64,000 nucleotides of DNA, from positions 11,971,001-12,035,000 of the forward strand of contig OU612066.1 in assembly GCA_914767715.1 (NCBI GenBank). The letters are read 5' to 3'. The first letter of the stretch is position 1. Every line of letters starts with the position of its first letter. The DNA comes from Membranipora membranacea. Taxonomy: Eukaryota > Bryozoa > Gymnolaemata > Cheilostomatida > Membraniporidae. Shown here piece after piece: positions 4,187 through 49,558 of the stretch. The notes below the pieces were generated by a model that was given only the letters and a program-made list of their open reading frames with translations, was not told the DNA's origin and did not search any database. Position numbers and translations under genes: made by a program.

Positions 4187-4244
4187 AATATCCATTCCTA
4201 ATGCACAGCCAGCCCCGAATAGCTGCCATTGTAGGTGCACCATT

Positions 4245-5870: not shown

Positions 5871-5965
5871 CAATTGCAGTCTGATTCTGATTGTTAGACT
5901 ATGTTACGACAGCAATCTACTGTATGGAAGAAGCCTCTTGATGAACTCAAAGATGTATTTTTTAG

Positions 5966-11080: not shown

Positions 11081-12187
11081 TCGTTCGAGTTTGTATGCCA
11101 ATATTAACAGTGAGGTACTGAATGAAAGAAGCTCATTGATTAACAAAATATATTTTTCATAGGGGCGCGATGGCATTCCTGGTAAAGATGGGAAGGATTA
11201 TACCTCACTGAAGTTGTTGAAGGATGTTATCAATGAGACTGGTGAACTGGTGAAAGGTTGGTAAACATTCTCGTTCTGTGCACAGACACAATCCTGTTAA
11301 AGTATTATCTTTATCTTTCCAGAATAAGTCTTATTCAGCTCATCTAGTTGGGTGTTTTGCGAACTATGGACCCACATTACTCAGAAATATTTCAGGTTCA
11401 GTAGGAGACTTGTTTTGATATTGAATAACCCTGAGGTTGAAGATGTTTCACAGAAGTTATTTTCACAAATCCACCGTAATGTTATAATATGTTTCAGAGT
11501 GGACCAAACTCTCTGACAATCTGCCTAGTTACGGAGGCTCTACTTATATAAGATGGGGGCGTACAACATGTCTTTCCAGCTCCAAACTTTTATACAAATG
11601 ATAGATGACAGGTCCTGATTTCAGGGCTTCAGGAGGAGGCGCTAACTTCTTATGTTTGACTGATGACCCTGAGTACTATCCTGACGCACCTGCAAATGTC
11701 CCACATTCTACCCTCCGCCGCACCCAGTAACAAGTAGGGTTCAGTCCTAACATGTTTGATAAATCGTTCGGTCAATGGGTACATCAAGCACCATGTGTAG
11801 CTTGTGAAGCAGACATGAGAGTGTCTAAATTGATGATCCCAGCTGTCACTCGGTACCCCTCCAGTGATTGGAAACTGGAATATCAAGGTTTTTTCATGTC
11901 AACTGCAGAACGCAGTTCTGCAGATATTCTGATAAAAGATTCTTTTTTTTCAGAGTGGAATATATATGTGTTGATGAGAATGCTGAACATGTATCCATTT
12001 CAAATGAAGGCGCCTTTACAGGGTCCATTATTTACCCAGTGTCTGCAGGATGCTCTGGTCAGGGGGCTCTCAAAAACTGACCCCATTTAAAAATGATAAT
12101 ACTGCTTTGTCATGTGTTGTATGCAGTAAATAGAATATCCATTCGTATGCACAGCCAGCCCTGAATGGTGAAAGTGAAGCCAATCAC

Positions 12188-12460
12188 CAGTGATTGGACA
12201 CTGGAATATCAAGGTACCTCATGTCAACTGCAGAACGCCAAACTGAAGATCAGTTCACAGCGGATTTCCATTTCAGAGGAGAATACATTGTGTTGATAAG
12301 AATGCTGAACATGTATCCATACCCAATGAATGCATTTGGACAGGGTCCATCATTTATCCAGTGTCCGCAGGCTGCTCTGGTCAGGGGGCGCTCCAAAACT
12401 GTCCTCCATTTAAAACTGATAATACTGCTTTGTCATGTGTTGTATGCAGTAAATAGAATA
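12188..12460 (+). pseudogene. Partial collagen C4-like last exon (copy 3b)
   Basis: The second half of the C-terminal domain is repeated just after copy 3, from the codons for SDWTLEYQG to the stop near 12455. The reading frame is shifted near 12285. It is preceded by the 3' flank of copy 3 (GCACAGCCAGCCCTGAATGG), so a tandem partial duplication produced it. Confidence 0.75.
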
Positions 12461-13648
12461 TCTATATCTAATGCAGTACACATTTTTCGGTTTTCCAGAA
12501 ATAAAATTCTGTAACACTTTGATTTGCTAGCATTTGCTTTGCTTGTTCAGTCTATTTTTCTGAGCCATTAAAACAGTTATAACTTGATTCCTAATTGCTG
12601 ATACAACGAATTAACCCATTATTTAAAATTTTCTCACGTTGGGTGATGGAAAATATCCAAACAAAACAACAACAAAAAGCCAAACCATGGGATTATAAAG
12701 AATAATGAAACAAATCATTATCGTTCCCAACATAAACCAAAAAATTAAAGTTGAAAGCTTATCTAGAATTTGCGAAGAGAAGTGATATAAGGGCACCACT
12801 AAATGGATATTTTTGTCCTGCGTTAGCTGTTGTTCAATAACTAGGTTTTTTTTTTCTTTGTATCGTAAATTTCAAATTGCATTGAATAATTTCCTGATAC
12901 TTTGAAGATTTTTTTTGTCTCTAAAAGGTGCACATGCCCATTATTGTTGTCACAAATGTTTTAGGATACGGCCATGGCAAGGTCAATTTCCGAAGGCTGG
13001 CAACACATGACCACCTTACAAATAACAATCAAGATCATGATATACCATATAATTTAATGTGTTATACCCAATTCTCCTGCATTTCGGTGTAGGGAAAGCA
13101 GGTAAATGGACCAAACTTGGCCTAATAAAAACCTGGCATATTGTTCAATACTTCACTGCCAAAAACATCTTTTTTTTTAAGACCCTAGAACCAGAATGAT
13201 CACACAGGATAGTTAGTCTGCCATAATACTCTCTTGACAGTTATTATCTTTTATCAATGCTTGTCGGTTATGTCAGGTTTTGTACTTTACTTTACAAATG
13301 TTTTGACCCACAAGCTTTTTAAGACAATCGGAATTTCAACTGAATCATAGAGATTTGATAGATTCATAGATTTGCTCAAAAAGAATTGTTTCCCATCAAG
13401 AATCAACTGAGAGCAGGGATGGTAGGTGTTACATGCTATGATAGGCTTCTGGCCCACCTTTATTTGTGCCACTGTATTTTTCAATTTAAATAAAGGAGGC
13501 AATATAACTTATTAAATTGTATATTATATGAAATTAAATTTACAATCTTCATGATATTGTCGAGTTGGATATGGGATATAATGACGCAGTATACACTATG
13601 ATATGAAATACACGAGCAATCTTTCCAAAGCAAGATTCCAGTCTAATT
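12461..13648. other. No gene seen
   Basis: AT-rich sequence with several homopolymer runs. I see no convincing exon or element. Confidence 0.5.
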
Positions 13649-14865
13649 TCATATTTCTAGCTGTGAGTCCATATCAGGAAGACCGAAAGCCTTCAACATA
13701 CCATTACATCTCCTGTCAGAGTCTGGTGTTCTCAACCAAGACTTATATTCAACTCTTTTCTTGTGGCTGAAAAAAGTTCCTGCTTGACTGTCCAGCTCCA
13801 TGCTTTTGTAAGCAACATCTACTAAATCGAGTGAGATGTTCAGATGCTTGAAAAGCTCAGTTATTACACAAAGAGGATCTTTACTCAACTCCTCGTACTT
13901 CAGTGCTTTGAAGTGTATTCCATCTTCACGATACTTCTTCATCATTCTAACTTTAGCTGCCCATAGCATCACATACCACTCGAATATATTACTTTGAGGC
14001 TTATGTTCTTTCACTAGCTGCAAACAAAACTGTGAATTGTACCCATTTGTGAACCATAACCATGCAGTGCGTCCTTCATCTGAGAGTTTTCCTGTTAGGA
14101 TCTTTCCTTGAGCGTCTGAGAGATTGTTCAACTGGTTGGGCAAATGACCAAAGGCTTTGTAGTACGAAGTTGCAGATGGAAGAAAGTCTCGACATGCAAA
14201 GAGAATGCTATGTGAAGGGAAGTGCTTCTTGATGATTGGGACCATGTGCTCATCCATACCAGTAGTTTTCCAGAAGATGGAATGATTTTTCGGCGCCATT
14301 AGTACATGCATTTTGATACAGGCCACCACCATTTTTTCATATTCCTCAGTTTTTGCAAATGCCGCAACATCTAGAAACTTTTTATCTCTTACAATGCTGT
14401 AAAACATTGATTGAGATTCCGAATATGTCACCCAGTTAGGCAAGGCTGCAAACATCTGTGACCATACTGTTGATCCACATCTTACTGTGTGGAAACACCA
14501 AACAACCCTTGTGCCTTCGACGTAGTTGTGGTCCAAAATTTCGGTGAAGTTTTTTAGTGGTACAACGATGATCTTTCTCAAATGATCAATCTGTGAGTTA
14601 CACAAGATCGGATTTTTCCTAAGATTGAATATGACTGATTCAGAGTCTAACTCGATGAAAGTCACAACATCTTTATCAAATTCAAGGAAATGCACATTGT
14701 CTCTTAGAATTGTTTTGGCGGGTGCAAAGTATTCATGAGAAAATATGAAGGAGTAGAGAGATATATATGCGACATTCCCGGGCAGTGTGTACCAGTTGTG
14801 GAGTACTTGGGCGGTGTATACTTTCTCTTTACCATCCTTTATATCTTGAAGTTTGCGATTCGTGC
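13649..14865 (-). CDS. PAPS-dependent sulfotransferase-like protein (large last exon)
   Basis: An open frame of about 405 residues begins after a good acceptor (CCCACTTTCAG) and ends with TGA at 13649-13651. Residues around HTVRCGSTVWSQM match the P-loop (PxSGST-like, 5'-phosphosulfate-binding) motif of PAPS sulfotransferases. HSILFACRDFLPSATSYY matches the following 3'-phosphate-binding motif (RDP-x-S). The C-terminal third (KYEELSKDP, then LFKHLNISLDLV) has the helix pattern usual in carbohydrate or heparan-type sulfotransferases. The expected reaction is transfer of sulfate from PAPS to a sugar or small molecule. The N-terminal exon(s) with a start codon were not found, so localisation is unknown. 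The P-loop lacks the usual proline and serine (RCGST), so substrate and activity are uncertain. Confidence 0.75.
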
Positions 14866-16010
14866 CTGAAAGTGGGGAATATGCAAACAAGTGAATAATC
14901 AGAGCTATATTACAAATACTCCTATCTAGTCTGAGTGAATGACTTATATTTACTATCTTTGGCAGTGATCACATGTATCTATCTGAGTAGCCTACTATCT
15001 ATAATCTATCTGAGGCGCCAAACACCACTTGCAGTGTATTCACACAGGGCCGCTGTCTTATGTAATTGAAAAAGTATAAAACTATGATTTTTTTTAATGA
15101 TTGGAAAATCAAACAACTCCTATCTACCTATCTCTATTTGAAATTACAAGACATGGAGGTTTATCTCCAAGAATTTTCTATCCCTTTCTCAGCAAATCAG
15201 CTACAATCAGACATATATTTCCTCACCTGAAATCCTCCATACGATATTATGAATTACTAAACGCCATAAAGCTCCAATCATGTTAGAAATATCGACCAGA
15301 TTCATGTTCAACAAGGGGTAAAGCAATGGCGTGCACTCAGAATCTGTAAAAAAATACATGACTGTTTATAATGACATTCATAACAGTAGTGCAAAAATCC
15401 AGCAACGATAAAATAGTAAAAAGTGCAGCAATGTTTTGAGATCTATCAGCATGGAATTTGTGTTTAATGTATTATGTAATATGATATTTATAGTAAATGA
15501 ATTTTGTGTTTGATTAATCGGACTGTAATTTGGAGTTGTTCACTCCTTGGTTCAAATCCCAAATAATAAATATCCTCCAATTTTTTGTTTTAGAATCCGC
15601 GATATGTATGGTTCAAATAGTGCAAATGCAATGGTAGCAGATCTGGACTTATAATTGCTGATAATTTGGTTATTAGAGAGAGAGAGACTTCAGAAACACA
15701 ACTGAACTGTTGATCAACAATACCTCAGCGGTAAGTAGAGCTACTATCGTACAATGTGCGCTAACCTCAACTACTGAGCACTGGTTTAGTTTTGTGTTGG
15801 GCGCAATTCTCGATGGAATTGCCAAGGATTTATTTTCAACAATAATAACAAACTACAAATATGGTTCTAATCGTCAGGCAATAAATCAATCACTGTTTTG
15901 ACAATAACTTGGCATTTATCATTTAGTCATAAAAATACATAAACATTCAAAATCTTTATAATAAGATCATACCCTTGGTGCAAATGACCTTGAATTCTGT
16001 GTGATATCTG
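14866..16010. other. No gene seen; one isolated Pol III B-box-like match
   Basis: GGTTCAAATCC at about 15550 matches a tRNA B box, but there is no cloverleaf or clear A box. The 5' exon of the sulfotransferase gene should lie here or further right; I cannot place it. Confidence 0.4.
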
Positions 16011-22553: not shown

Positions 22554-25500
22554 TCAGGGGCAAGGATGGTCGTCCACAGGAATCACAGAGGTTGTTGTAA
22601 GGTCACTGTTTTCATCTCGTCGTCCACAGCTGGCAACAGTACCTGCAGTAAATTTGTATTCAAGGGATGGTAAATTCATGGATCAGTGATAAAATATACA
22701 GTCAAAACAGAACAACATAGGACTTAGAGTAATTTAAATAATTGATATGGTATCCAAATTGAAATTGAATATCAACGACTAGTTCAACTGAAAATAGGAA
22801 AAAAATATTATAAAAAAGATTCTCTCAAATTATATGGATAGGATGTTGAAGATTGTCAGATGTATAGCGGTGAGGGCGGTAGGGGGGATGGCAAATGATT
22901 GATGAAATAATCCCGTTGGCAGTTGATACATCCAAATCAAATTGCCAAAGCTATTTACCAATATGCCTAGCTGATGTAATATCAGCAACAATTGCCAAGC
23001 CACATTTACGTTACTACTAACCATATCTTAACTTGACATTATAGAAGTCCTCTTCCTCCAGTGCTAAAACAGTAAAGGATATGTGCTGATTGTTAGCCAA
23101 CAATCATGAACTTGAGAGCTGATGGCTTGGTAAATCAATAGATAAGTGTGGGACGGAACTAATATTTTTTGTCAAAACATTCCATGAACAAACAAAACGA
23201 TGACTCATTATCAAAAGAAAGGAACGTTCCATAATGATTATAAATAGTAAAGGGCAACATTATAAAGCAAAGAAATCGTAGCCAACCTTGAACCCGGCCT
23301 TTTAATTCTGTGCTCTCACTCTTCAGGTCCTGGTAGAGTTTTCTTAAATTTTCATATTTTACATTCTGTGATATTTCATTATGCCTCAGCTGAGAGTGAA
23401 TACTAGCAGCTCCAGAAATCTGGTTTGATGGTGTTGTTGTGAGAAGACCCTTCAATTCTAGATCTGCCTTCTCAACTCGTTCTCCGTATGCACTGAGCTC
23501 AGATTTCAGCTCAGCACTTAATCTTCTATACTTCTTCTCAAACACTGCAGTCAGCTCGATTAATAACGACTCTCTCATAACAAAATAGCAACCTGAGCGA
23601 TTTGGATTCAAATGCCCCAAAATAGCGCTACAAAATATAAATTTGTTGTAGTTTATTAAGAGAAAGACGACTCAGTTTATAAATATTTCTGATAAGAACC
23701 TTTTTTTACGCTATTCAGAGTCATGGTAAAGCCTCTCACAGATTTTGCAATGCTCTCGCCAGGGTTATGGGTGAGCTCAGATGTATACATACAAAGATAA
23801 CTTGAATGTTGCCCGGCCTTAGAAGATTTCTGAAACCCTTTATATACAAACCTCTCATGGGCTGATAGTAGGCACTGAAGAGTGATCAGAGAGCCCCATT
23901 GTATGACAGCTGAGCAGGAAACACATTGAACGCTGTTCTCGTTGTTTGGAATCAGCCCTAAGAATGGAAAAAGAGTAAATTATCCTACCTGGATGTCAAT
24001 ATCACATTCCTCTTAACTCACACAAGTCTTACCTAAGTGCAACACCAAGTTTTTTTTGTAATTTTGATAGTCCTAATTAAATATAAGCGAAATGCAATGA
24101 AATGGTCAAACAAGTCTGAAATTCATCTGCAATGGTCCCCACACAGCACCAGCACTCTGGAAAACAGCTAATATGAGCCTAAATACTGGAAATTTATCTG
24201 TTCTCACCCTGTGAAGCAAATTGAAGAGCTGTAATTTTGGGATGGTTTATGTTCTTGTTGAGAACAACTCGGGCTTCCAAATCAGGGCATTTCTCATGGG
24301 TCTTCACCGCATGCTTCTGTTCAATTTCAGTATTAATAGAGAGCGTTCCGTTTTGCCCAATGTCATTCACTATTTGACGGTCATCAAAGTCTGCTTCATC
24401 GCCAGTGGTTGCTACAAGCAGTAATTTTTTTTTTCATTAAGTAGGAGCATAAAATCTGTAGGGAACAGTGTTTTGACTTGCCAAGCCCCAAAACCTGCTG
24501 TTAGTCAAGCCGTTCACTGAATGCTATGATTATCCCTTGATGCTGGTAGAAAAAATTATGGTTGTAATCGCAAGGTATCTGTCCAAAGACAAAGGAATAT
24601 TGGAGCCTAAAGGATGAGGCCGCCTTATTGGGCACCAAGTTGATCAGTTTGCAAAGGGGGTGTGCTCAGTAGTAAACTGTTCAATGATGTCAGCAACTCT
24701 ATATATAACTAAAAGCTCCCCATCTAAGCAGCTGGATTCATTCAAGAGAAATAAATCATACAAAATAGCTAGTTGTCTGCACTTTATGACAGGGAAGATA
24801 ACTCGACTGCCAAACTGGAATTAACGCGGTATAGAAAAGCTGTCAAAACCAGCAAACAAAGCAAGGAGCGAAAAACCAGCAACACAGTAGTAAAGAATTT
24901 AAAAAAACCATTAAACCATTATTGGATAGCGATTATTTTATCAAAATTAGGCCATAGAAAAGGAAACTTCCTCCCTTACTTAGATTATGAATCATGAACT
25001 TCCAATAGTAGAGTACACCGAAGCTGTGGAAAACAGACAATACAACCCTTGTTATATTATGATCAATAAAAATGACTCAAGTGTCCGAACAAGTATACCA
25101 TTTGTCATTTTACATCGGTGAACACTTAGTTTATCACTGTTTGGTTTTACCTAATGAGTCATGGAATAGAAAACAAGAGCTGCTGAATATTAGGCAATTT
25201 CGCCGACCTGTTCCACTGTAATAAAATTGATTATTAATAATCAGTGTAAAATCCCATACACATTAGCTCTCAACTGCGTATTGGATTTTACACTGATTAT
25301 TAATAAGCAATTTTATTACAGTGGAACAGGTCGGAATTGCCTATTGTGATCAAGACAATCCGATTTGGCGTATTCAAATGATGGATTGGTGTTATTATAA
25401 CAGTTTTGGCTGCATGCCTTAAATAAGACAAGTGAATATTTCATGCACAGGGCATTTTTCTAGGTTTTTGGACCCCTTCAATACAATATACAATACAATA

Positions 25501-27421: not shown

Positions 27422-30400
27422 ATGGAGGAATTAAAGACGATCCTTGCACAGCCAGTCTCAGTGATCACTAAGCAGCTTGCCTCACTGAGTGTGAGTTCTT
27501 TAGCGGCTATGTTAATACAGAACAGTGGCAATGGTACCATCATGCATCGTCTGGCATCGGCAGGAGAGATCGAGGCCATAGATATGATATGTCAGTCATT
27601 GTCTGAGGCTGCTGTTGTCGATATTTTGATGATCACAACAACAGGAGGACAAACAGCTCTACACGAAGCTGCATCTAAAGATCAGGTTGTTGTGATCCAC
27701 TGTCTGTTAGAGAGGATTGGTAGTGAGGACGCATTCACAATTCTCAAGATGAAGGATGTAGGGGGCGCCACAGCACTTCATACTGCTGCTAGCAAGTCAC
27801 ATGTCAGATCAGTTAGCTGTCTGTTGAATTTCCTGACCTCCCAGCAGCGATTTGATCTTCTCAATGTCGCAAACAGCAGAGGGGAGACTGTGATCGATAG
27901 ATTCTTTGAATGCTCTACCGAGACTCAAAAAGAATTACAGAAGTATTTCCATGCTGCCAGAGTTTATGTTGTGAACAGATCATTGAACAAGGAGAAAAGG
28001 TAAGTGGATGCCTTGGCTCAAATTTGTGAGATTTTTTTACATACTGCTGAAAAGAAATTTATGATTGTGTTTTAAGTTATAAAAGTTTTGCTGTTTGCAT
28101 TCAAAAACATCATGATATATCGGCTTGATTTCAGATTTTTCTCACAAATTCATGGTTGCATGTTGTAGTAACTCTTTGTTCTATATATCTTTTTTTTTGT
28201 AGATTTCCATCCAAAAAAATGGATACCAAACTGCTGGATGGTATGCTGGCTTCTTTTAATGTAAAGGTATGTCGGCAGCATCAGATGTTTGGTTGACAGG
28301 ATAAATTGCTTACATGACTTAATTTCAAGAAAAGTAGTTTTGGCTATCAGTTGAAACCTTGAATGTCATGTAAGTTCATAATTTCATCAAGTTTTCATAG
28401 TGGAATTGGTAAGATATGGAATTATTTGAAACAAAAATTGAAAGTAGGACAAAAAAATAGATTGTTGTAATTGAAATTTGTATGTCTACAGGACTCAAAA
28501 GAAGCGCTAGATTACATACTGAACAAAATGAGAGTGTCTCCTGATGTGGATAGAGACGTTCTCCGTACGATCCTGGAGGCTGTCCCTGAGCCTGATCGTC
28601 TCTGTGTTCTAAGGACACACAACATACTGGGCTCTGCTCTACACTGCGCAGCTTCAAGAGGAGAAAATAGTCTGGTCCTCTGTATCCTCGACTTCTTACA
28701 ACCAAATAACATCCATCTTGTTTTGAAAATAAGCAGAGATGATGGCAGTACAATCCTTCATACCTGCTTCTATGATAACAACACTGTGATTCTCTCCAAA
28801 GTTTTTGACCTTGTCTCGGAAGCTGACGCTTTAAAACTTCTGAGAATGAAGGACACAGCAGGGCTGACATGCATAGATTATGCAGTGCAGAAGGGACATA
28901 GCGCAGTTCTTAAATTGATGTTGGACAAAGTCAGTGTTGATGTATTGCTACTGAAAGGACTTCTGAGGACTTCAAACAAGAATCAGCTCCCAGAAAGTTT
29001 GAAAGACAAATCAGAGATTGTAGTTGCACTGTTCGGTATAAAAGAAAATGGTAGGTATTAAACTTTTCACCATTCTCTATGAGATATCTTAAAAACATTT
29101 TTTCGAGTATCAAATGGGCACACATGGTTGCGGTTAACACAACATAGGTTGGATCAAGACAATAATATATTGTTTTTTTAGCGCAGACTGATCTGGTGAA
29201 AAATTCATACAGCAAATGGATGAGACAAGAACCGATCCCTTGTGGAGTCACAAAGCTAAGTAAACTGGGTAAGTCTCTTGCTGTATTGCTCCCTGATCGC
29301 CTAGATGCATATTTCTTTGGAAAGTGATATGACTTTGATTGCACACGAGACCTTTACCTTTATATTTACCTGGTGATAAGCTGAAGAGGACATCTATTTT
29401 CTCCAATTTAATTTTTAAACTCGGGTTTTAGGTCTTACAAAAAATGAGCATGATGATGATGATAAATAAAATATCGGATCTCATCAAACAGTAGTGTTGT
29501 GATCTGACATGGTTTTTGTTTGAGCTTTTCTTATGAATGGAGGAGTGTGGACCCTGTTTTTTACAAAGTCGACTACTTTTTTTATCTGTTTCTGCCTGTT
29601 CATTGCACCATTTTCCTTTTTGACAGGGCTTAGATATATTGGTATGGATGATCTGGTGAATTGCGGTCATTGTAAGGAGACTTTTCATCTGCTGTCTAGA
29701 TCAGACCTGAAACTGGAGAGGCACCTTAAGTATGTAATACAGTAGTCTATCACTAACACAATTTATGAGATTCTTTTTAAAAAAGGGAGCTATCACAGTA
29801 TCACGTGTATGAGTTTTTCAACCAGCACAAAATTGATCTGCATTCATTTTTAGGGAAAACCACAGGGCTGATCCACGAATGAGCAAAGATTGATAATTGA
29901 TATAATTGATATTAATGTCATATGGATGGTTGATATATATAAATACCAATGTCACTCATAGTAAAATACAATCAACTTTACATAGCATCTAAAATCGCAG
30001 CAACAGACATGACCAGGTCAAAACATTGTAAATGTGTATCTATAGAAAGTAATCATGGTCCAGAAAAGGTGTGTGGATTTCTTGCCCTCAGAGATATGAC
30101 AAAGGATCAGTAGTCATGAGAAAGTTCAAGTTATTTTATAATGACAGACGTACAAACACACTTCAGTCATCAGTACTATTTTTATATAATTTTTATCACA
30201 TTTATTTTTATACATCAGTGCCCAGCCTGGCAGTTGTGTAGAGGAGCAAGATGAAAAAACTAGTAAGGTAAGATTTAAAATTATTAAGTAGAATCATTCT
30301 ATATTAAGTATAACATTTTGTAGATGTAAACCTGCTGTAACAAAAGCACACTGACTCGACATCCATAATACATTGCATAAACAGGCATTTATGAAAATAC

Positions 30401-33400
30401 AGCTTAAAAATATGGATGTTTAATTTAACCAAAATTGTTCCAATTTTGCTGTTATTTATAGGCTGAAAAGTCACAACTAGCTGAAGAAGATCAGATTTCC
30501 TTTGATGAGGCACCAACCAATCCTTCAGGTTAGTGCTGCATTTGCAATGCATCAAGTTACATAAATTAGGAATAATTTGTGCACCATATTTTCCCTGCTG
30601 TCCCTTTCGACAACAAGCGGTCTGCAGTATGCGTTGTTGACAGGATTCTATAACTTTTAGGAGTGGATTCAATACATGACCTGTAACGGTCACATCCCTT
30701 CTAATATGTTATCCGAACAGGATTACAAAGTCCCATAATACAGCATGAACGAGGAATTATCAATCAAATCAGGTCAATCTCATGAATCTTATCATTCAGC
30801 AGATAACACATGGAATCTTCCTGTGCTCAATAGATAACCTTCAAACTTGGGTATGTTTCAGAATCAAGAAAATTTGTAGTCGGACCAAAATCGGAGAAGG
30901 CTCCGCATCATTATGACAAATTTGAGAGGAGATTGGAGTCAATGCAGAAGCTCAAGTCGAAAGACTCCATGAGCATCAATCTGTACAAACTGGCTAAAAT
31001 AGGTAGGTAAAGGCAATTGTTTGTTAGAATCACACACAATAGTGCAGGGAAGGCAAGCAAAGCAACCAATTCAGAATGCAATTATATAAAGATCCTTGGG
31101 TGAGCTTCACTTGAAATTTCAGAATATTAATAACTCTCTCGATTTAATCATATTTTTTATTCATCATGATTGTTATTGTGATTAACCCATCCGGCTTGTT
31201 ACCCCAAACTCCTACATTTTGTTTTCAAATTATTTGTTGTGCGGGAGCAAACAACTGCGCAGCTCTGCTGATGCTGTTTATAACCATATTAGTCTATCAG
31301 GTCAAAGTGATATTATCAGTACTTTAGGTCCTCACCCGTATGAGAAAAGTAAAAGGAAGTAAAATTTGTGAAATCACAAAGCCTTGGATTTTTCCGCCTA
31401 CTCCGATCCACCATCGTTCAGCTATGGATTCAGACTATTGAAACATTGCTTGCAGCATATGTTTTTCTCTGATCTCCTTCAAGGATGTTACTACACTGGG
31501 ATATCTGATCTGGTCCAGTGTATATTCTGCAAAGGGAGATTCAAACTTCAGTCTAATACTGATAGAGACAAACAGCAGCTGGAGCTCCATTCAGGGTGAG
31601 AAAACTTTTTAAGAGGATCGGTTGGACACCTGGATCATCGCTTAACATCAATATCGATGATCCATTTTCATAATGCCTCGAACAGCATAAAACTACACTG
31701 TGATAAAATGAAATGACAAATCAACAAAAAATAATACTAATGAAATTAATGAAACTAATAAAACTAATGTTGTTGAATCTGTCCAGGAAAAGGGCACTGG
31801 TCAGCTGATTCATGATAGCCAGGGTATTGTTCGTGTTTACCAAGATTTTTATTCAGATTTGTATACTGCAGTTCCGACTGCTCGATCAGAGGCAGATTTC
31901 TTTTTAGATTTCTTGGGTCCTTCAGACTACGTAAATACTGATTCCACAGAGGATGGCAATAGTCCGTTTTCTATCCCTGATATTAAGCAGGCTATCATGT
32001 CAATGGAAAACAATAAAACTCCGGGCCCTGACGGTCTTCCAAAAGAGTTGTATGCTACATTTTTTGACGTTCTAGCAGATGATATGTGTGAGGTTTTAAA
32101 TAATGATTTTGAGTTAGAGGTCTTGCCTAAGTCAATGACTGAGGCTGCCACCATCCTGCTGCATAAAGGCGGCGATCAATCTGATCCCAAAAACAAAAGA
32201 CCAATATCGCTACTTAATGTTGACTACAAGGTATTAGCAAAGGTTGTAAACAAATGGCTGGGTAAACTTTTACCAACTGTAATAAGTGAAGTACAGACAT
32301 GTGGTGTAAGCGGTCGTAACATTGTAGACAATTTGATATGTTTTAGGGAATCTATTGAGTTTACTTGTAAGTTAGGTAATAGCGACACTGTATTTGTCTC
32401 TCTAGATCAAAGCAAGGCGTTTGATATGGTTGACCATAAATTTTTGTTGGCGGCTATGTCAAAGCTTGGTGTGGAAGATAAGGTATTGCGCCTTGTTAAG
32501 ACTATGTACCAAACCATTTCCACTAGGGTTCAGGTGAATGGCATGTTATCAGACCCAGTATCTATCACAAGAGGGGTTAGACAAGGGTGCCCTTTGTCCC
32601 CATCCTTGTATGTTATATACATTGAGGCGATGGTGAGAGCTATCACACAGTGCAGGCTTCTCTCCGGCTGCCCTGTGCCTGGCCCTGACAGTTGGAAGTG
32701 TTTAGCCTATGCGGATGATCTCTTGGTAGCTTGTCATGCTTCTGAGGTGGACCATGTTTTTGCATCGTTTGCTAGGTTTTTTAAGGCCACAGGTAGTTTA
32801 CTGAATAGGAGTTAAACAGAAATTCTTGCATCAGTTTCAACTGCCGGAAGACATGTAGGGTCGTTGAGCGAGTACGGGAAAGACCGCATAAGATTTTTGG
32901 GTTTGGAATTTTTAATAGACCAGTTCACAGATATGGCATCATATATTTGGAGCAAGGTATTCGAGAGAGCCAGGGAAAAGATTGAGGGATACAAATTGAG
33001 GAGACTGACCATTCCTGGGAAGATAGTTCTTCTCAACACGGCTGTTTTCCCAATGTTTTACTATTTGGCTAGTACATTTCTACCCCCAGGTGTAGTTTTA
33101 GAAAGTTTGTCACGTTTGACCTTTGAGCTTATCTGGTCCCCTGCCAAAAGGAAGATGTTAGACAAAATCTTTTTCTTTTTGCCCGAAGACAAAGGGGGCT
33201 GGGGTCTGGTTCATCTGCTGTCTAAGGCGAAGAGTCTGTTTTTTTCTAACAACTTGTCTTTTTTTAAGTACTTTTTTTCTGTGCGATGCAGGGATTTTTT
33301 TCCGACTGTGTTTGACAACACAACACCACATATCTTAGTATTAAAGGAATCGTGCCTGTATTATGGGCTCATTGAGCTGTATCGAGACATTTATGATAAA

Positions 33401-36400
33401 TTGGGAGTTATTCTCCCTTTTACACCCTCTGTAAACCAAGTATATCAATGGTTGCTCGAGCTCAAAGACATTCCTAGTCAGCTACAAGTCAAGTTCTCAG
33501 CAGGGCTTTCGGAGGAGAAGCAAATCTTGGTGTGGCGGTCTGTTCATTCTGGAGCGCTCAGCGCTAGGTATAAAGATTTCCTGTGGAGGCTCTCATCTGG
33601 TTCCCTGAAAACGGGAGAAGTCCTAGCAAGATATGCCTTGGGTGAACACCAGTGTGTCTATTGTAAAGGGGGGCTGGAGACAGTCACACACCTATTTGTA
33701 ACTTGTAAAGAACTGCAGCTAGCCCGCGACCTCCTGGCCTGGTATGCACAACGGTTTGTTGATATGGAGATAGATTTGCGAGGGAGCTTGCTATGTTGAA
33801 TGGAGTATTTTCCGATCGAGTTGGGCATAATGAAGGAGACCGCCAACTTCGGCATCTTGTTGTGGCCTTCAACAAGGTTATATGGGACATGAGGTGCCGT
33901 ATAATTTTTGACAGTGAGGTTTTTATCTTCAATGTTCTAAGGTCGATATTTTTGTCTTGCTCTTTTTCAGCAATATCATCGGAGAGAATGAGTAATTTTT
34001 TCATGTTTGATGTTTAGCGTGCATCAATAGAGATTCGTTTTTTTGTTTTTTTTTCTTCTCCCATGGTTTTTTTTCCAGCAGTCACTCTCAATGACTGATC
34101 CAAAATTTGTTTTTGTTGCCAAATCTTTAGTGAGCCACGGGACAACCTTTTCTGCCGCTAGTGTGTGTTCAGACAATCGCTGTCTGCATGAGAATTTGTG
34201 GTGAGTCGGTCACAGCATACCTAGCAAAACCTAGTACCATACACAAACCTTAATCAAATATCATCTCACTAATTTTCCTGCCTTTCACAAACATTATTCC
34301 CATGGCTCAGTAGACAGTTGAAGAGGGCGATATGGGTTCAATCCCCATTTTTTCCGAGTTTCTGGTTGAAATGTCGTCCTGTTTATCAAAGTTTTGATAA
34401 CGAAGAGGCTTTATAGACCAGTATTTTGTCGATGTTCTGGCGTGCCTTAAACAGGAAATCAATAAGCACCTTGTAGGTTTCAATATTCACAGACCTGTTA
34501 TGGTCAAATTCTATACAATTGTTGGGTTTCTCATGTTTGGATTTGACCTTATTGTTTTAGTAGGGAGAGTTGCACAATGAAGAGACACAGTGGAAACGAT
34601 TATCACTTGGAAACAAATAATTGTGAGGTAAGTCCATGTCAGTAAGATATTGAAAGTCACCAGTATCATGCTCTCCCTTACTGTTATTGTTTTTGATGGG
34701 AAAGCCAGCTACCAATCACCCCGTTGTGATTCCTATCAAACCGTTGTCCTCACCATCTTAAACATATGTTTGCAACTTAACCTCATATCTCAAAAAAACT
34801 TTGAAACTAGTTTAAAAGCCAAATGATAAAGGCGTTCCACCTTGCTGTCAATTTGTAGATTTTATGTTTAAATTTTGTAAATCTTATTTCTATCAGGTGT
34901 TTATCAAATGCCTTCAACTCGAGAAAACACTAGCAGACCTTAGACTCCCAGATCAGCCTCTGGCTACACAGGAGATGCTTCGATCCCGGCTATTAGCCGT
35001 ACCCTCAGGGAAGAGGTTAACACAACTTATGAGAAGTAATGACCTTGGTAGTATCATGCACAAAATGGCTGCAATTGAAGAAGCAGAAGATATTATTGAA
35101 TGTATCACCAAGAGTGTGGAGAGGCAAGACTATTATCGCCTCATGAAAATCCAAGATGAGTGTGGACAGACCGCGCTTCACGTAGCTGCAAGGAACAATC
35201 ACTTATTGGCAGTAGTCTGCATGCTAGAGCACCTGCTTCCTGATGACAGAGTCAGAATTCTTGAAATGAGAGATACGGGGCACCTCACTGCGTTCTATCA
35301 TCTGGCAAAAGATGAGCTGAACTGCGATTGGATAATTTTGAATCTTTTACCTTTGATTGAAGTGCAGTACCTTGAAAAGTTCTTTGAAGTGCAGCTTTAC
35401 ACAAATCAGGAGCTGTCAGTGACAATGATTGAAACCTTGAGTGCATACAGAGAGTCTCTTATCATCACCCCTCCCCCAGGTTGGATGCCTTTCACATTTG
35501 GGAAAAAATTTCCTGCTTCACCTTGTTTACAATGCAGCATAGTAGTAGTCATGACTCTTAATGCAGATAAGCCAAAACTCTTTGCATCTTGTTATTTTAG
35601 CTTTTCATCTGTTTATATTCCATGTATGTTGTTAAAGGTACAAGCAATAAGGACAACCAAAATTTGATTCATGACACAAAGTTTAATCTGTTCTCAGATA
35701 TACAGAAGCTTAGAGAGCTGATATGTGATAATGACAGGGCAAATCTTAAAAGCTTCATGAGACAGTGTGAGAATAAGCAGACAGCTATCGATGAAGCAAC
35801 GAAGCTTCCACTGACATCTGAACAGATAGAAGATCTATCTCAATACAGTGAACACTATGTTATACCTGACGATCAGACAAACTGCAGACGACAGGCTATG
35901 ATATTCTACTGTGCTAAGGACAGAGTTGGGGCCGAGGAGGAGGCAGAGAAGATGGGTGCGGCTCTGAGAACTGTAGGCTTTAATACACAGATGGAAGAAT
36001 GGCACAATTTTTACAGACTGCGGTTGATGATGAGAGAAAAAGTGAGTATTATTAGTATGTACATGTAAAATTGATCTGATCATCTGGGATATTTCATGTT
36101 AAAACTGCATTGTGGGAACTTTGTTTGCATGCCAGTTTAAATTTTTGCAATTGATTGCAGAAGTTGTCTTCTTATCCACAATGAGTACAATACGTGGTTA
36201 TCACACATAGTTATAATAATTCAATCCTTACCTGTTCCTTCCAATTAATTGTTATACTATACATCATAAGAAAATATGCCAGCCTCCAGTATTGGTATTT
36301 ATTGTGCTACGATAATAATCTGAGGCTATCAAGCAGTTTATTGTTATCGCTTATGTTTCGATGACTTTTCCATAGATAGCGGAAATCAGAGAGACGACAT

Positions 36401-37491
36401 CAGTGCTGTTAGTTTGTATCATGTCACATGGTATCAGAGGTCATGTACATGGTAATGATGAAAACTATGGCAGTATCAACACAGTTATGTACGATATGAG
36501 ATGTGAAATACCCGACTACATACCTATGGTGAGCAAGGTTTGACTACACACATCGAAAAAATGAAGTATTATGTCTGTTTTCTTGCGTGCGAAGTCTGTA
36601 GGAGAAAATATTATAACCTTTTCAGTAATCCTCGGCTTATGATAAATGTCTGATATTCTTCCCACTGATGCGGGCACAGTGAGTGTAATTATTTTTCTAA
36701 TTTGAATTGGAGGCCTGTGTGGTGTATAGTGCCATGCTAAATGCTGATTAACTGAATGCCGCTGATTCTATAGTCAGATCCCCAGAGTGGACTTTTACGT
36801 TTTTTTCATACATGAAGAGGATATTATGACAGTAATGTTGTGTTTATCTGTACAATAGATACTAATGGTACAGGCCTGTCAGACCACCCAGAGTGAAGAC
36901 GATCTCAATCATCAGACGGATAACCAACAAGCTGAATATCATATCAATTTCCATCGTCCTGCTGCGGATACAGAGCATATCATACTCAGGCGTCCACATA
37001 CAGCATTACTTCTATCAACTATACCAGGTTTGTCTCAATCATATAAATGCCATTAGTAGTTATATGTTCATGATCCCAATATAACACTGTCTTTGTCATA
37101 TCAAGATGATGTGTTTTGATGTAAATCCTGAAATAACAGTAAAATGTATAAAAGTAATCACAGATGAAGGTTTTTAAAGGTCATCAATAGTCTATCTTTT
37201 TTTCTAGCGAAATATAGTTTCTTTGATTGTGGGAGTTTAAACTATTTGCTTTCTTTACACTACTTTTATGAAAAAATTGTTTATTAAGGCGGCAGATCTA
37301 TACGTGGCTTGTACACATCAGCTTTGGCCGAAGTTCTGAGCAAATTAGAAGGGAAACACGACTTGAGGACAATACACAGCGCAGCGGTGAGAAGGATCAA
37401 GAGGAATATAGACTATGCAGCATATGAACAGATTCCAGAATATAGAGATACATTCGATAAAACATTGTTTGTATGCGGTGCTCATAACTGA
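27422..37491 (+). CDS. ANK-BIR-BIR-ANK-caspase fusion protein (15 exons, ~1112 aa)
   Basis: Exons: 27422-27999, 28203-28266, 28492-29050, 29182-29268, 29627-29729, 30219-30267, 30462-30528, 30862-31002, 31484-31595, 34561-34627, 34897-35479, 35638-36041, 36376-36528, 36859-37027, 37289-37491. All use GT-AG and all phases fit, giving one uninterrupted 3339-nt frame. Residues ~35-165 and ~255-365 hold ankyrin repeats (GQTALHEAAS, GATALHTAAS, GSALHCAASRG). BIR1 has C442, C445, H462 and C470; BIR2 (YYTGISDLVQCIFC) has C562, C565, H585 and C591, so both zinc sites are complete. A second ankyrin block is at ~655-735 (GQTALHVAARN). The caspase domain (~885-1112) has R899 (DRVG), H956 (SHG), C996 (QACQT rather than QACRG), STIPG at 1042-1046 and a p10-like end. 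The predicted role is a cytosolic protease of the cell-death/innate-immunity type carrying its own IAP-like zinc domains. Activity is unproven. An acceptor-like TTTATAG precedes the ATG, so upstream exons may exist. Confidence 0.78.
31735..34075 (+). mobile_element. Tx1/L1-like LINE, 5'-truncated, in BIR2 intron
   Basis: The reverse transcriptase frame runs from before 31768 to 33799. It includes NKTPGPDGLPKELYATFFD, SLDQSKAFDMVDH, RGVRQGCPLSPSLYVIYIEA and the YADDLL catalytic box. A single TAA (32813-32815) interrupts the frame, which then continues in the same phase. Further on, CVYCKGGLETVTHLFVTC is the Cys/His motif usual after the RT in Tx1-type elements. A frameshift near 33795 leads into the last ~70 residues (to 34017). 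No endonuclease region is present, so it is a truncated, dead copy. It sits in the ~2.97 kb intron between exons 9 and 10 of the caspase gene, same strand as the host gene. Confidence 0.9.
34125..34420 (+). mobile_element. tRNA-SINE-like repeat
   Basis: TGGCTCAGTAGACAG (about 34302) resembles a Pol III A box, and GGGTTCAATCCCC (about 34335) a B box. The surrounding ~250 bp (from GTCTGCATGAGAATTTGTGG to GGCGTGCCTTAAA) recurs at 55013-55260. The A-to-B spacing is short, so it may be a diverged SINE rather than a tRNA gene. Confidence 0.55.
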
Positions 37492-39347: not shown

Positions 39348-41025
39348 GTATGATATTATATTGTTCCTCAGTGGTTATAAAATGGCGAGACATGAATTAA
39401 TTCCACTTTGTGATAATATTTTTATACACCCATCTAGAAAGGGCTGCATCTTCAGTTTTATCTGATGTAACCTTAACTGAGACCAACCTTCAATGGTTCC
39501 TTTTGACGTTTTCTTGCTACCCCAGACTCTGACTTGAGACTTTAAAAGAATGCGTTATTTCAATATTATAACAAAATTAGATATCTGGTTGCTCTGAATT
39601 ATGTGAGCTCAAGTATATGTTTGAAAGCAGAATATGTGTATTTCGGACAACAAAACTGACAACCTCCGTCATTGATTGTTATCATTACAGGATAAAATCA
39701 ACCAGTGGTAACTTGCAGAAAGATTAATACATACTATGTTGCATCATCACTGATATTCCATTGCCAATTTTGAAGCGGACAAAAATCTTTTACCTTTGAT
39801 TTTAAAATAATCAGTTATCATTATTAAGTTGAAGTCCCTACACACCTGGCACAATAAGCGAAACAAAGAATTGAAACTAGATTGGTGGAATGTAGGCCTA
39901 TGAACCTTTTATCAGCTGATAAGTTATAAATTCTGCTGTGGTTTGCCCAGAGCTTTTTTAAAATTTTGTGCTTTCGTTGCATTTGGCCTGACTACATATA
40001 AAATATCATTTTCAGCGTGATATTGCAAATCAGAATCCAGAGGCGTAGTGGTATGCCTCTCCATTGCATACAATGATGAGGAAGCAAATGGATGCTATCA
40101 AAGCAAGATCGGCCAGCAGTAACCCGCAGAGTCAGTAAACCTGTGGTTTTGACGGCAGTCTTATAAAAGTATATCAACAATATTAAGAGACAGCAGTGAT
40201 GTGTGTGTAGTCTTTTTGATCGTATAACGCTACCCATTTCAGTTTGTATAGTAGTCATTTTAGTAAGTAGTAATAATTAATTGTTTATAAATTCCTGTCG
40301 TTTTAGACCCCTGCAGAACACCAAATTAATATTCGGGCATGGAATTGACTATGGGTAAAATAGCTTAGTTTCAGTTGGAACTCTTTTGTTGCATCAGGTG
40401 GCCAGCACTATCATGCACAGAGTATTATATTTTTTAATTAGAGGACAGTCATTTTAGTACAAGTCATGTGAGGTAAGAAATCTGGTTTCCAATCAAGCAA
40501 CTGCAGGATTCTGGTACGGTTGCCTTTCAGTTACACATGCCTTTGGCTACCAATCAGCAGGAATGCTTCTATTGCTTCTCAACTGTAAAGCATCATGTTT
40601 TGCAAGCCATAACAATAGTCATCTCCATGCTAAATAATAGAGAATAACACTTTTTTGTGCTTGTGTTAGATGCTTGTAACATGCGATCATATTTTATGAT
40701 TTGAAATTATCTATTTTTCACATTTTTGAAGTTTGTTTGTACCATTGGAACCTGTATCTTGGACGTGATTAGGCTTTTGGTAGGGTATGTTTGCAGTATT
40801 TAGGCCCTGTTTGATAATTATATATTATTATTGCGTATTGATAATTGAGATGTTACCTACGGGTGCTGGATATATGATCTGGACTGATCATATAATCGGT
40901 ATTGGTATTTTTAATTTATCTAGGAACAAAGTAGCCATAACTTTAGGAATTTGCAGTTGGTGATAATCATTACCTTCCTTGCATAATGAAACTGTGAAAG
41001 TTAGACCCATAAACTGAACTGTTAA
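39348..41025. other. No gene seen
   Basis: AT-rich; nothing recognised on either strand. Confidence 0.4.
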
Positions 41026-41029
41026 AACC

Positions 41030-41430
41030 GGCTGAGGGGAAACCCGACTATGGGGAAAACCCGGCTGTGGGGAAACCTGACTATGGGGAAAACCGTTATG
41101 GGGAAAACCCAGCTGTGGGGAAAACCCAGCTGTGGGATAAACCCGGCCATGGGGAAAACCCTGCTATGGGGACACCCAGCTGTTGGAAAAACCCGGCTAT
41201 GGGGAAAACCCAGCTGTTGAGAAAACCTAACTGGGGTAAACCCTGCTATGGGGAAAACCCTGCTATGGGGAAAACAAAGCTGTGGGGAAAACCCAGTTAT
41301 GGGGAAAACCTGGCTATGGGGAAAACTCGGCTGTGGGGGTAAACCCAGTTATGGGGAAAACCATGCTGTGGGGAAAACCCAGCTGCGGGGAAACCCCGGC
41401 TGTGGGGGAAACCTGGCTCTGGGGAAATGA
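41030..41430 (+). repeat. 17-bp minisatellite, about 23 copies
   Basis: The consensus AGCTGTGGGGAAAACCC (with GGCTATGG variants) repeats with few length changes. Because 17 is not a multiple of three, each long open frame here is an artefact. Confidence 0.95.
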
Positions 41431-43009
41431 CTAGCACAATAACATTTTGTAAACATTCTAAATTGTCAAAAATAGTATATATGCCTTCTTCGCAAAGATA
41501 TTGATGGCAAGCCAACTTTCATGTCAGCTCCGTGCTAGTCAATTGATTCAATTAGTTCAAAGCCAATTTTTTTTTTATCAGTAAAGCCGAAGATTCTCCC
41601 AAACCAGTTATGGAAGACAAATCACTAAGTCTGATAATTGTCTCGGTAAAATATTGATTAGCTAATCGATTCCTTCCTCTCAGGCAATCAACTGATCCAC
41701 ACAAAAAAATTGAAGGATTCTGCAAATTTTTCTCAGTCTAACCCGATTTCTTTGATACGAAAAACGTGATTTTGAAGCTGATGCTGATAGACCACAATCA
41801 AATCAAATGTTATAGTCGAGTTTTAAGACATATTAATTCGCAACCTTAGCTGACCTCACTAATTCGTACCTAAGACATGTAGCATGATCATATTATCACT
41901 AGGTCTATGAGCTGAACGATGCAATGTATTAGATTATAAACACACTATGATTGTTTGTGCCCCCCCCCCCCCCGTGGAGATAAAGAAGACAACAACTTAA
42001 ATTCACGTTCAAAATGTCTATAATGTTCAAAATGCTATTAGGAATTCCAAAACCTTTTAAATGTTAGCTATTAAAATTGTGACAGAATCTCATTTCTAAA
42101 GAACTGAAAGTAGAAAATTGAAATGTATGTACCACGTTAGAAAACAGCCAGCCCTTTTATGGTGCACCTACAATGGCAGCTATAGGTGCTGATTGGCTTC
42201 ACTTTCACCAATCAGGGCTAGCTGTGCATTAGATACGGATATTCTATTTACTGCATACAACACATGACAATGCAGTATTATCAGTTTTAAATGGAGGGCA
42301 GTTTTTGACAGTTCTCTGACCAGAGCAGTCTGCGGACACTGGGTAAATGATGGACCCCGTCCAGGCACCTTCATTTGGAATGGATACATGTTCAGAATTC
42401 TTATCAACACATATATATTCCCCTCTAACAAAAAATCTTTTATCAGATTATCTGCAGAATGGCGTTCTGCAGTTGACATGAGGTACCCTTGATATTCCAG
42501 TGACCAATCACTTGAGGGGCACCGAGTGACAGCTGGTATCATCAATTTAGACACCGTCATGTCCGCTTCACAGGCTACACATGGTGCCTGATGTTCCCAT
42601 TGACCAAATGATTTAGCAAACATGTTAGGACTGAATTGCACTTGATACTGGGTACGGCGGAGGGTAGAATGTGGGACATTTGCAGGTGCATCAATAATAT
42701 TCAGGGTCATCAGTCTAACATAAGAAGTTGGCTCCTCCTCCTGCAGACCTGAAATCAACCTTTGATAACATCTTTCGACAGTTTTAATGAGGAAAACTCC
42801 TTCCCATCTTTCCCAGGAATGCCTTCGCGCCCCTAAGAAAAAAATTTTTGTTTGATCATTGAGTTTCTTTCATACAGTACATCACTGTTAATATTGACAC
42901 TCTTGTTTTCATATTTAACTGCAGCTATAAGGTTTTTGTTAGTTCTAATCAATCAGACTCAGTCTAAAAAAAACAATATTTTCTCTATTTAACGTGCAGG
43001 ACAGTATTG

Positions 43010-47245: not shown

Positions 47246-47394
47246 CAAACATGTACCGTGGCCCAGAAAGCCGGATTACATTAAACTTATCTGCTGTGAA
47301 TTTAATTTAAAAAATGCCTGAATTGAATTAAACATTTCAGTGAATTTAATCAAACTTTTCTGCATTAAACTTTTCTGCACCAAACTTTCAAGTT

Positions 47395-47590
47395 CTGCAT
47401 CAAACTTTTCTCCTCTTAATCAAACTTTTTCACTCTGAATTAAAATTTTCTGTTCTGCATCAAACTTTTCTGTTCTGCATCAAACTTTTCTGTTCTGCAT
47501 CAAACTTTTCTGTTCTGCATCAAACGTTTATACTCTGCATCAAACTTTTTGTTCTGCTGCATCAAACTTTTCTACTCTGAATCAAACTGT
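47395..47590 (+). repeat. 20-bp minisatellite (left arm)
   Basis: The unit TCTGTTCTGCATCAAACTTT repeats about nine times, with variants. Confidence 0.9.
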
Positions 47591-49257
47591 TCCGCTCCAT
47601 TGACATCAACCACCCTATATACTTGTATTTCTGTATGCAGGTCCTAAATCTACAAATTTGCCTCACAGAATATTTTGGTGCACATTTTGTTAGAAGGAAG
47701 ATGAAAGATGAGTAACCAGCTATTTTTGGGCGTTCCCAGTACAAATATTTTATACCATACATGCAGGTCTATTATTTAAGATTTGGTACCATACAGGCTG
47801 TTATCCTCAGCTTTATAAACTACAAGTTTTTAATCAGGGTATTTCAATAATACACAGGTATAAGAAATCAATACATTTATAAATATTTGTTGAATTCCCA
47901 AATAGCTTTGACAGCAAACGGAAAATCCTTACAAGTGGGACCTTTTGTCTTATACAGTCACGATGAAATTTCAATTTCATTTGTGGGCCTAACCACTACT
48001 CTTATCATACTTGTTTCGTTAGTCAGCAAAAAAGCCTAGTTTTTGGGAACAAACTTTAATAGAAACCTTTACTATTCTAAGGGCAACAGCTTATCACCAG
48101 CCCTAGACTGACTGGCCTCAGCCACAAATCTTTTTTATACTATACAAAAAGGGAATTTTCATTGCTATCTTACTAATGGTAAAGTCATAAAATTTATTCT
48201 TCCACTTATTACCAATAATCGATTTCCATGAAATTTCTATAATAACCAATATAACATTTAAAAGAAATGAAGCAATGTATAGACATTGTTTTCTGCTAGC
48301 TTGACAATACGAATTCTGCAGCAATCTAAGTGAGGTCACTACAAATAAAAGGGCTTATGGTTTTGCTGGCCACAATCCTCACCCGAAAACCTAATTCATT
48401 CTGTTAGCACAGTCTGACCCAATACCACAATTTCAAACAATTTGCCAATTTTTTAATTGATACTGATACAAACATGACAATTCACACCAGTGGGTTGCTG
48501 CATAACCACACAGGAGATAATACTACTTCGATAATATGGACAGGCTTAAATTGCAGTTCAAGAAAAAATCCCACTACATTAGGGAAATATACTGAGAGTT
48601 TTTACCTAGGTAATACATACAGATGTAATAATAGAGTATTCCAAGTGGTGCGGAGGTTTTTGCAAGGGCCAGCCTCTACTAGGGTAATTATTTTAGTGAG
48701 AGCAGGTGTAATGAAATAGAATTGACTCTGGTCAGATGCCAGCTCTTTGTTTCTATGATGTTTTATTGCTTTGCATCAGCAGAATGTTATACATTTTTGT
48801 TAGCAATCTGACTCCTACATACTCAGACTCATACATGATAATAGCTTAGCTTCAGCGTATAGCCTAACGAAATTTGTGAAAGGATGGGTCCGAAGAGAAT
48901 GAGACTTTCTGTCTGTTGAGGCAAGCAACAATTTCTATGATGATACACTTTTCACATTTATGTGCTGGACGGGTTTAGAATCCAGCATACATGAAGAAAT
49001 AATAATCTAGAAAAGCAAACAGAGGGTCTCCCTGTAGAAACCAGTTTAAATAGAGATTTCTGATATAGCTGTTCGAAATGTTTGGGAGAAACGTATTGTC
49101 CATGCTGTGTGACTGTGGCCTTGATAAAGACTGCCATGCAGTTCTATTGCAAATCATCAATGTATGAATTCAAATGAAAGCCCATTGACTATGAACTATT
49201 GGTAGACTTAGGACCTACATACAGCAATATATAATATAGGGTGGTTGATATCAGTGG

Positions 49258-49405
49258 AGCGGAAAAGTTAGGTTCAAAGTAGAAAAGTCTGATTCAGAGT
49301 AGAAAAGTTTGAGGCAGAGTAGAAAAGTTTGATGCAGAACAGAAAAGTTTGATGCAGATCAGAAAAGTTTGATGCAGAACAGAAAAGTTTGATGCAGAGA
49401 AGTTT
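49258..49405 (+). repeat. 20-bp minisatellite (right arm, inverted)
   Basis: The unit AGAAAAGTTTGATGCAGAAC, the reverse complement of the left-arm unit, repeats about seven times. Confidence 0.9.
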
Positions 49406-49558
49406 GATTAAATTCAATGAAATGTTTAATTCAATTCAGCCTTTTTAAATTAAATTCACAGCAGATAAGTTTAGTTTTATCCGGCTTTCTGGGCCACGGT
49501 AAACATGATTTACAGAAAAACTGCAACTAGAAATCGATGGCGTTAAGCCGCAGTTTTC

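What the first reader, a model, noticed from the sequence alone, without database searches (positions are those of the whole stretch)
27422..37491. A single protein joining ankyrin repeats, two BIR domains and a caspase
Fifteen exons join without any phase conflict into ~1112 codons. Both BIR domains keep all four zinc ligands, and the caspase part keeps His (SHG), Cys (QAC) and the substrate-site arginines. BIR domains of the IAP family are known to bind and inhibit caspases. Having two of them in the same chain as a caspase, framed by ankyrin blocks, suggests a self-restrained protease or a sensor whose ligand frees the protease. I know of no well-described protein with this order.
Basis: partly seen in the sequence, partly recalled or inferred. 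Interest (0 to 1): 0.93.

Follow-up and report, generated by a model that had tools for sequence, protein, structure and literature searches.

The report
Gene fusing ankyrin, BIR and caspase
An animal gene appears to encode one long protein that joins ankyrin binding repeats, two domains of the kind found in caspase inhibitors, and a caspase-type protease domain, a combination for which I found no described example.

Summary
Fifteen GT-AG exons on the + strand (27422-37491) join into 1112 or 1113 codons, stop included, without frame conflict. Pfam recognises ankyrin repeats, two BIR domains and a caspase above curated cut-offs. All 11 exons kept out of training score best of six frames in the predicted frame, exon 2 with a score of zero. 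The two BIRs lie on three-exon modules with identical intron phases; two of three ankyrin exons share theirs.

Self-inhibition is less supported. Zinc-ligand spacing is unusual in both BIRs; both lack the pocket tryptophan; the caspase linker has no Asp-Ala site. Catalytic dyad and substrate arginines are kept, but the pentapeptide is QACQT and one loop is five residues short. I favour a sensor-fused caspase activated by proximity.

No BIR-caspase chain appeared in three protein searches, in the listings of ten literature searches, or in the passages seen of eight papers. No transcript was available, and the own-genome search did not complete (15 tries), so paralogues are untested.

The parts
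27422..27999 (+). Exon 1: ankyrin block 1 (first ATG; an upstream exon is not excluded)
   Evidence: Pfam Ank_2 37.9 bits for exons 1-2 alone; phase in 0, out 2
28203..28266 (+). Exon 2: linker
   Evidence: GT-AG, in frame; lowest coding score of the 11 tested exons, about 0, still best of six frames
28492..29050 (+). Exon 3: ankyrin block 2, phase 0 to 1
   Evidence: Ank_2 34.9 bits alone; phases
29182..29268 (+). Exon 4: first part of BIR1
   Evidence: BIR1 33.8 bits over profile 3-66 of 70
29627..29729 (+). Exon 5: BIR1 core, C-x2-C and His ligands
30219..30267 (+). Exon 6: BIR1 last Cys (H-x7-C) and tail
30462..30528 (+). Exon 7: linker, phase 0 to 1
30862..31002 (+). Exon 8: first part of BIR2
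   Evidence: BIR2 30.1 bits over profile 1-59 of 70
31484..31595 (+). Exon 9: BIR2 core, C-x2-C and His (x19 spacing)
31712..34014 (+). Stop-broken LINE-like reverse transcriptase inside intron 9 (not part of the protein)
   Evidence: RVT_1 3.9e-31 and zf-RVT 1.7e-8 in two successive ORFs; a third ORF 33763-34014 was only listed
34561..34627 (+). Exon 10: BIR2 last Cys (acceptor 34561 or 34564)
   Evidence: of 5 acceptors listed (Cys near the expected place, consensus-like donor, right phase) these 2 are the only ones outside the LINE; positive coding score
34897..35479 (+). Exon 11: ankyrin block 3, phase 0 to 1; weak donor GTTGGA
   Evidence: tblastn to exon 1, 28% over 167 columns, E 2e-12; Ank_2 23.8 bits alone, below cut-off; phases and donor
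35638..36041 (+). Exon 12: linker without recognised domain, then start of caspase p20 with substrate-site Arg (DRVG)
   Evidence: Peptidase_C14; alignment to 1m72
36376..36528 (+). Exon 13: p20 with catalytic His (SHG)
36859..37027 (+). Exon 14: p20 catalytic Cys (QACQT), inter-subunit linker, start of p10
37289..37491 (+). Exon 15: p10 with substrate-site Arg (SIR), QIP, and stop
   Evidence: p10 19.0 bits, below cut-off alone; alignment to caspase-3 p12

Best explanation
A sensor-fused caspase of an invertebrate that works like an initiator caspase. The ankyrin blocks bind a ligand or partner; the BIR pair acts as a docking and assembly module rather than as a classical IAP groove; when several chains gather, their caspase domains dimerise and switch on by proximity, linking recognition directly to proteolysis or cell death. 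Shown: one open frame with these domains in this order, catalytic and substrate residues, shared exon phases. Inferred: one transcript, protease activity, proximity activation, ligand role of the ankyrin blocks, and that the animal is an invertebrate.
For: Domains and order. Dyad and substrate Arg positions retained. No CARD or DED in the Pfam scans of the whole protein and of the segment before the caspase, so the ankyrin-BIR part stands where a recruitment prodomain would be. Precedent: amphioxus LRR-caspase and TNFR-caspase chains, the latter supported by cDNA (PMC2575513, passages), and two oyster caspases with dsRNA-binding prodomains (PMC7836458, passages). BIR1 is nearest, among solved structures, to BIR3 of the sensor NAIP (E 7e-4). 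Pocket residues changed and no Asp-Ala site, which speaks for docking rather than classical cis-inhibition.
Against: No transcript and no usable structure model; three protein searches found no relative with this order, so conservation cannot be shown. QACQT and a loop five residues shorter than in caspase-3 may mean weak or no activity. The fit to NAIP is weak (23 bits whole sequence, 18.5 for the domain), and XIAP, a caspase inhibitor, is almost as good a match for BIR2.
Confidence: 0.45

Rival explanations
1. Self-restrained protease: the BIR domains bind the caspase of the same chain and hold it off until a ligand of the ankyrin blocks frees it.
For: After NAIP, XIAP is the best solved match on BIR2 (E 3.2e-5), among them entries 1i3o, 1i4o, 1i51 and 1kmc that also hold caspase-3 or -7 chains (that this is XIAP BIR2 is recalled); an acidic residue of the pocket is kept in both BIRs (its role is recalled).
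Against: Both BIRs lack the pocket tryptophan and the strict Type I/II marker residues; no Asp-Ala in the linker; zinc spacing unusual, most in BIR2.
Confidence: 0.2
2. Catalytically weak or dead caspase fold used as an assembly or decoy domain.
For: QACQT instead of QACxG; in a two-sequence alignment to caspase-3 (24% identity) five residues are missing after SIR and seven more columns are gapped further on; p10 alone is under the Pfam cut-off and found no solved structure.
Against: His, Cys and both substrate Arg positions kept; caspase part 64.3 bits over nearly the full profile; other bivalve caspase homologues also vary in this motif (PMC7836458, passages).
Confidence: 0.17
3. Two neighbouring genes or transcripts: an ankyrin-BIR gene, and an ankyrin-caspase or caspase gene starting in the LINE-bearing intron 9, in exon 11 or at ATG 35622.
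For: Intron 9 is 2965 nt and holds a sense LINE; AATAAA at 31757 and 32012; in-frame ATG 35622 just before exon 12; exon 11 has a weak donor and exon 12 a weak acceptor tract.
Against: BIR2 itself straddles intron 9 and, outside the LINE, only exon 10 completes it under the filters; exon 10 has a positive coding score; read-through beyond exon 11 scores -0.28 bits per codon while all 15 exons are positive, though those exons trained the score; exon 11 shares its phases with exon 3.
Confidence: 0.15

Closest known systems
Amphioxus LRR-caspase and TNFR-caspase hybrids (PMC2575513, passages seen)
   Same: A recognition module fused directly to a caspase, bypassing adaptors
   Different: The paper gives QACxG for them; BIR is mentioned there only in a domain list and for NLRs, and ankyrin not at all
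Oyster caspases with two dsRNA-binding domains (PMC7836458, passages seen)
   Same: Caspase with an unusual prodomain in an invertebrate
   Different: Prodomain type. The paper's tally of 46 bivalve caspases (CARD, DED, death domain, dsRNA-binding, or none) leaves no BIR or ankyrin member
NAIP (BIRC1)
   Same: BIR domains on a cytosolic sensor; nearest solved match of BIR1
   Different: NAIP has NACHT and LRR and no caspase domain (recalled); neither NACHT nor LRR was found here
XIAP and other IAPs; bivalve IAPs (PMC8917759 passages and section 7; PMC7831173 passages)
   Same: BIR fold; a BIR split by an intron, as in clam IAPs
   Different: No RING match here; pocket tryptophan lost; fused to a caspase

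Membership tests
Caspase (Peptidase_C14) | p20 and p10 in one domain above the Pfam cut-off | tested here: met
   64.3 bits, profile 15-232 of 233
Caspase (Peptidase_C14) | Catalytic His and Cys | tested here: met
   SHG and QAC aligned to 1m72
Caspase (Peptidase_C14) | Substrate-site arginines | tested here: met
   DR aligned to SR of 1m72; SIR aligned to SWR of caspase-3; their role is recalled
Caspase (Peptidase_C14) | QACxG pentapeptide (usual, not universal) | tested here: not met
   QACQT. Motif as in PMC2575513. PMC7836458 counts homologues with QARQG, QICQG or a lost RG as caspases, so I treat it as a warning about activity, not as exclusion
Caspase (Peptidase_C14) | Protease activity | not testable with these tools
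   needs purified protein
Initiator caspase | CARD or DED prodomain | tested here: not met
   no such match; hence 'works like', not 'is', an initiator caspase
IAP family | At least one BIR domain | tested here: met
   two, 33.8 and 30.1 bits
IAP family | Canonical zinc-ligand spacing | tested here: not met
   H-x7-C in BIR1; x19 and H-x5 or x4-C in BIR2 (read); canonical spacing recalled; one search also needs a gap before the last Cys of BIR1. Zinc binding itself not testable
IAP family | Type I or Type II marker residues | tested here: not met
   residue before His is R and L; third after His is A and R (criteria: PMC8917759 section 7). With acceptor 34564 BIR2 has Ser four after His, one loose 'Type I-like' mark. 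Numbering is uncertain because the spacing departs
IAP family | Caspase inhibition | not testable with these tools
   needs assay
NAIP/NLR | NACHT domain | tested here: not met
   no match at E <= 1
Ankyrin-repeat protein | Ankyrin repeats above cut-off | tested here: met
   whole protein and blocks 1 and 2; block 3 alone below cut-off

The most novel reading that the evidence does not exclude
A sensor, an IAP-type control module and the executing caspase in a single chain: an all-in-one switch in which BIR domains control the attached protease in cis by a surface other than the IAP-binding groove.
Probability: 0.2. Interest if true: 0.9.

Novelty: new variant of a known kind. Interest (0 to 1): 0.62.

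Why it matters
Caspases and BIR proteins are known as enzyme and inhibitor on separate chains (established knowledge). A natural fusion would let one test whether BIR domains can serve as assembly or control modules of a protease in cis, and would add to the invertebrate shortcuts that join recognition straight to a caspase.

Tried and rejected
Whole model: 2 hits with E <= 0.001 among 7992 scored (a capped list), with ankyrin-type and other Pfam accessions, neither PF00653 nor PF00656. Caspase part: none with E <= 0.01 among 2859. BIR part: none with E <= 10 among 389. Only proteins of 0.55-1.75 times the model's length sharing exact words were candidates, so distant or shorter relatives can be missed. 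Scans of viral contigs (caspase: no pattern match; BIR: 1 match, not confirmed) and of genome contigs (caspase: 7 matches, none confirmed) gave no relative; these are viral and prokaryote collections, so this says little about animals.

Folding: two single-exon pieces (exon 1 and exon 12) gave poor models (mean pLDDT 53.8; 42.6), so no fold search was run.

Target-site duplication of the LINE: between 31590-31760 and 33850-34560 only two 8-nt repeats, not convincing. Three alternative exon 10 acceptors inside the LINE were set aside because they lie in its reverse-transcriptase frames. The bacterial promoter scan of the 3' side is not meaningful here. Rfam and tRNA scans of the window gave nothing. 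NCBIfam gave nothing useful. Of 31 downstream ORFs printed none was scanned.

I saw listings with starts of abstracts, several of them cut (for example 20 of 166), and passages of eight papers: PMC8917759 (also its section 7), PMC7831173, PMC2575513, PMC9334734, PMC3196919, PMC12909245, PMC2246300, PMC7836458. No paper was read whole and no supplement was seen. The library holds open-licence papers only. The source organism was not identified.

Full report
What was checked. The stretch was listed and read. From hand-placed exon edges, a script tried every GT and AG within 3 nt of each edge and kept only paths without an internal stop. Two paths survived, identical except for one residue at the start of exon 10; the other edges had one candidate each. 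The protein has 1112 (or 1111) residues and its stop ends at 37491. All 14 introns are GT-AG by construction; most donors look like the usual consensus, the weakest being GTTGGA after exon 11. Searches were trial assemblies.

Is it more than chance. Codon log-odds were trained on exons 1, 3, 11 and 12 against this gene's introns (LINE intron left out); the other 11 exons were tested. In 11 of 11 the predicted frame scores best among six; exon 2 scores about zero. The sum is 83.2, against a mean of -34 (sd 21, maximum 35.5) in 2000 draws of equally long segments outside the gene with an open frame, each given its best open frame. Two biases remain: exons were chosen to be open, and stops lower the other frames. 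Exons are 43% G+C, introns without the LINE intron 33%.

Domains. Whole protein: Ank_2 68.1 bits, Peptidase_C14 59.6, BIR 53.5 with two stretches. Pieces: BIR1 33.8, BIR2 30.1 (cut-off 22.9); ankyrin blocks 1 and 2 pass, block 3 does not on its own; p20 39.5 and p10 19.0 bits against a cut-off of 21.4. Block 3 matches exon 1 by tblastn at 28% over 167 columns, E 2e-12; away from the exons the best tblastn match in the window on either strand is chance-level (best E about 0.7, antisense within exon 3; others 3.9 to 6.8), so no second copy lies in the window.

Exon modules. Exons 4-5-6 (BIR1) and 8-9-10 (BIR2) have the same phases: 1-1, 1-2, 2-0. Exons 3 and 11 (ankyrin) are both 0-1; exon 1 (ankyrin) is 0-2 if its ATG is the start. 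The gene thus reads, after exon 2, as ankyrin (0-1), BIR (1-0), linker (0-1), BIR (1-0), ankyrin (0-1), caspase (1-). This is what exon shuffling and duplication would give. BIR1 and BIR2 align along their cores. A BIR split by an intron into about 80 and 120 nt is described for hard clam IAPs (PMC7831173, passages).

The long intron. Intron 9 (2965 nt) holds a reverse transcriptase in broken frames (RVT_1 3.9e-31, zf-RVT 1.7e-8). It separates the first three candidate ligands of BIR2 from the last. A search for acceptors giving a Cys near the expected place, with a consensus-like donor in phase, listed five: three inside the LINE frames and the two versions of exon 10.

The BIR domains in detail. 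BIR1: Cys442, Cys445, His462, Cys470, spacing C-x2-C-x16-H-x7-C. BIR2: Cys562, Cys565, His585, Cys591, spacing C-x2-C-x19-H-x5-C, or H-x4-C with the other acceptor. The canonical spacing, recalled, is C-x2-C-x16-H-x6-C. In the HMMER alignments the tryptophan of NAIP BIR3 faces Leu of BIR1 and that of XIAP faces Gln of BIR2, while an Asp is kept in both; the roles of these residues in the peptide pocket are recalled. By the strict criteria of PMC8917759 section 7 neither is Type I or Type II; with acceptor 34564 BIR2 would carry one loose Type I-like mark, and the numbering is uncertain because the spacing departs. BIR1's best solved match is NAIP BIR3 (E 7e-4). For the two-BIR stretch the best are NAIP (E 4.9e-6) and XIAP (E 3.2e-5), the aligned part lying on BIR2.

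The caspase in detail. The alignment to the chain 1m72, named Caspase-1 (of an insect, recalled), keeps the p20 Arg, the His of the SHG and the QACQ (E 2.8e-4). p10 alone found no solved structure at E <= 10. The pentapeptide ends in Thr where the usual motif has Gly. Asp residues of the linker are followed by D, L, N and T, none by Ala.

Single gene or more. The strongest rival split is at the LINE or before exon 12, where ATG 35622 lies in frame. Against it: BIR2 spans the LINE intron, exon 10 has a positive coding score, read-through from exon 11 has a negative one (there the exons trained the score), and the phases match. AATAAA occurs at 29465, 31757 and 32012 inside introns and at 38143 after the stop; the hexamer is common in such A+T-rich DNA. 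Only RNA can settle it.

Novelty. No BIR-caspase chain came up in three protein searches, in the listings of ten literature searches or in the passages seen of eight papers. Fusion of a caspase to a recognition module is known in amphioxus (PMC2575513) and unusual prodomains in oysters (PMC7836458), so the kind is known and the combination is what appears new. The limits are real: exact-word seeding, a length window, a capped candidate list, open-licence papers only, and an own-genome search that did not complete.

Verdict. A well-supported gene model with an unusual domain order. By homology it is a caspase-domain protein; it is not filed as an initiator caspase (no CARD or DED) nor as an IAP. 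A sensor-fused caspase that works like an initiator is the most likely reading (0.45), with self-restraint (0.2), a weak or dead caspase fold (0.17) and two genes (0.15) as rivals.

Noticed in passing
window 31712-34014: A sense-strand LINE-like reverse transcriptase with broken frames sits in intron 9, between the exons that carry the candidate zinc ligands of BIR2.
   Followed up: partly
window 98-694 and 2176-2772: Inverted repeat with 597-nt arms, 98% complementary, 1481 nt apart: perhaps a recent element with long terminal inverted repeats.
   Followed up: no
window 3067-4218, 5949-6619, 11096-12475 and 42212-42972: A dispersed repeat in several direct and inverted copies, about 79-92% alike over the better-matched stretches.
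   Followed up: no
window 41024-41427: Minisatellite with a 17-nt unit, about 24 copies, 75% matches; open in more than one frame.
   Followed up: no
window 47350-47569 and 49237-49416: Two arrays with 20-nt spacing that are in part inverted copies of each other, 79-83%.
   Followed up: no
window 13652-14968, minus strand: A 439-codon open frame with a sub-threshold match to a sulfotransferase family (23 bits against 27).
   Followed up: no
window 23162-23671, minus strand: Sub-threshold match to the occludin/ELL domain (18.7 bits against 31.2), possibly an exon of a neighbouring gene.
   Followed up: no
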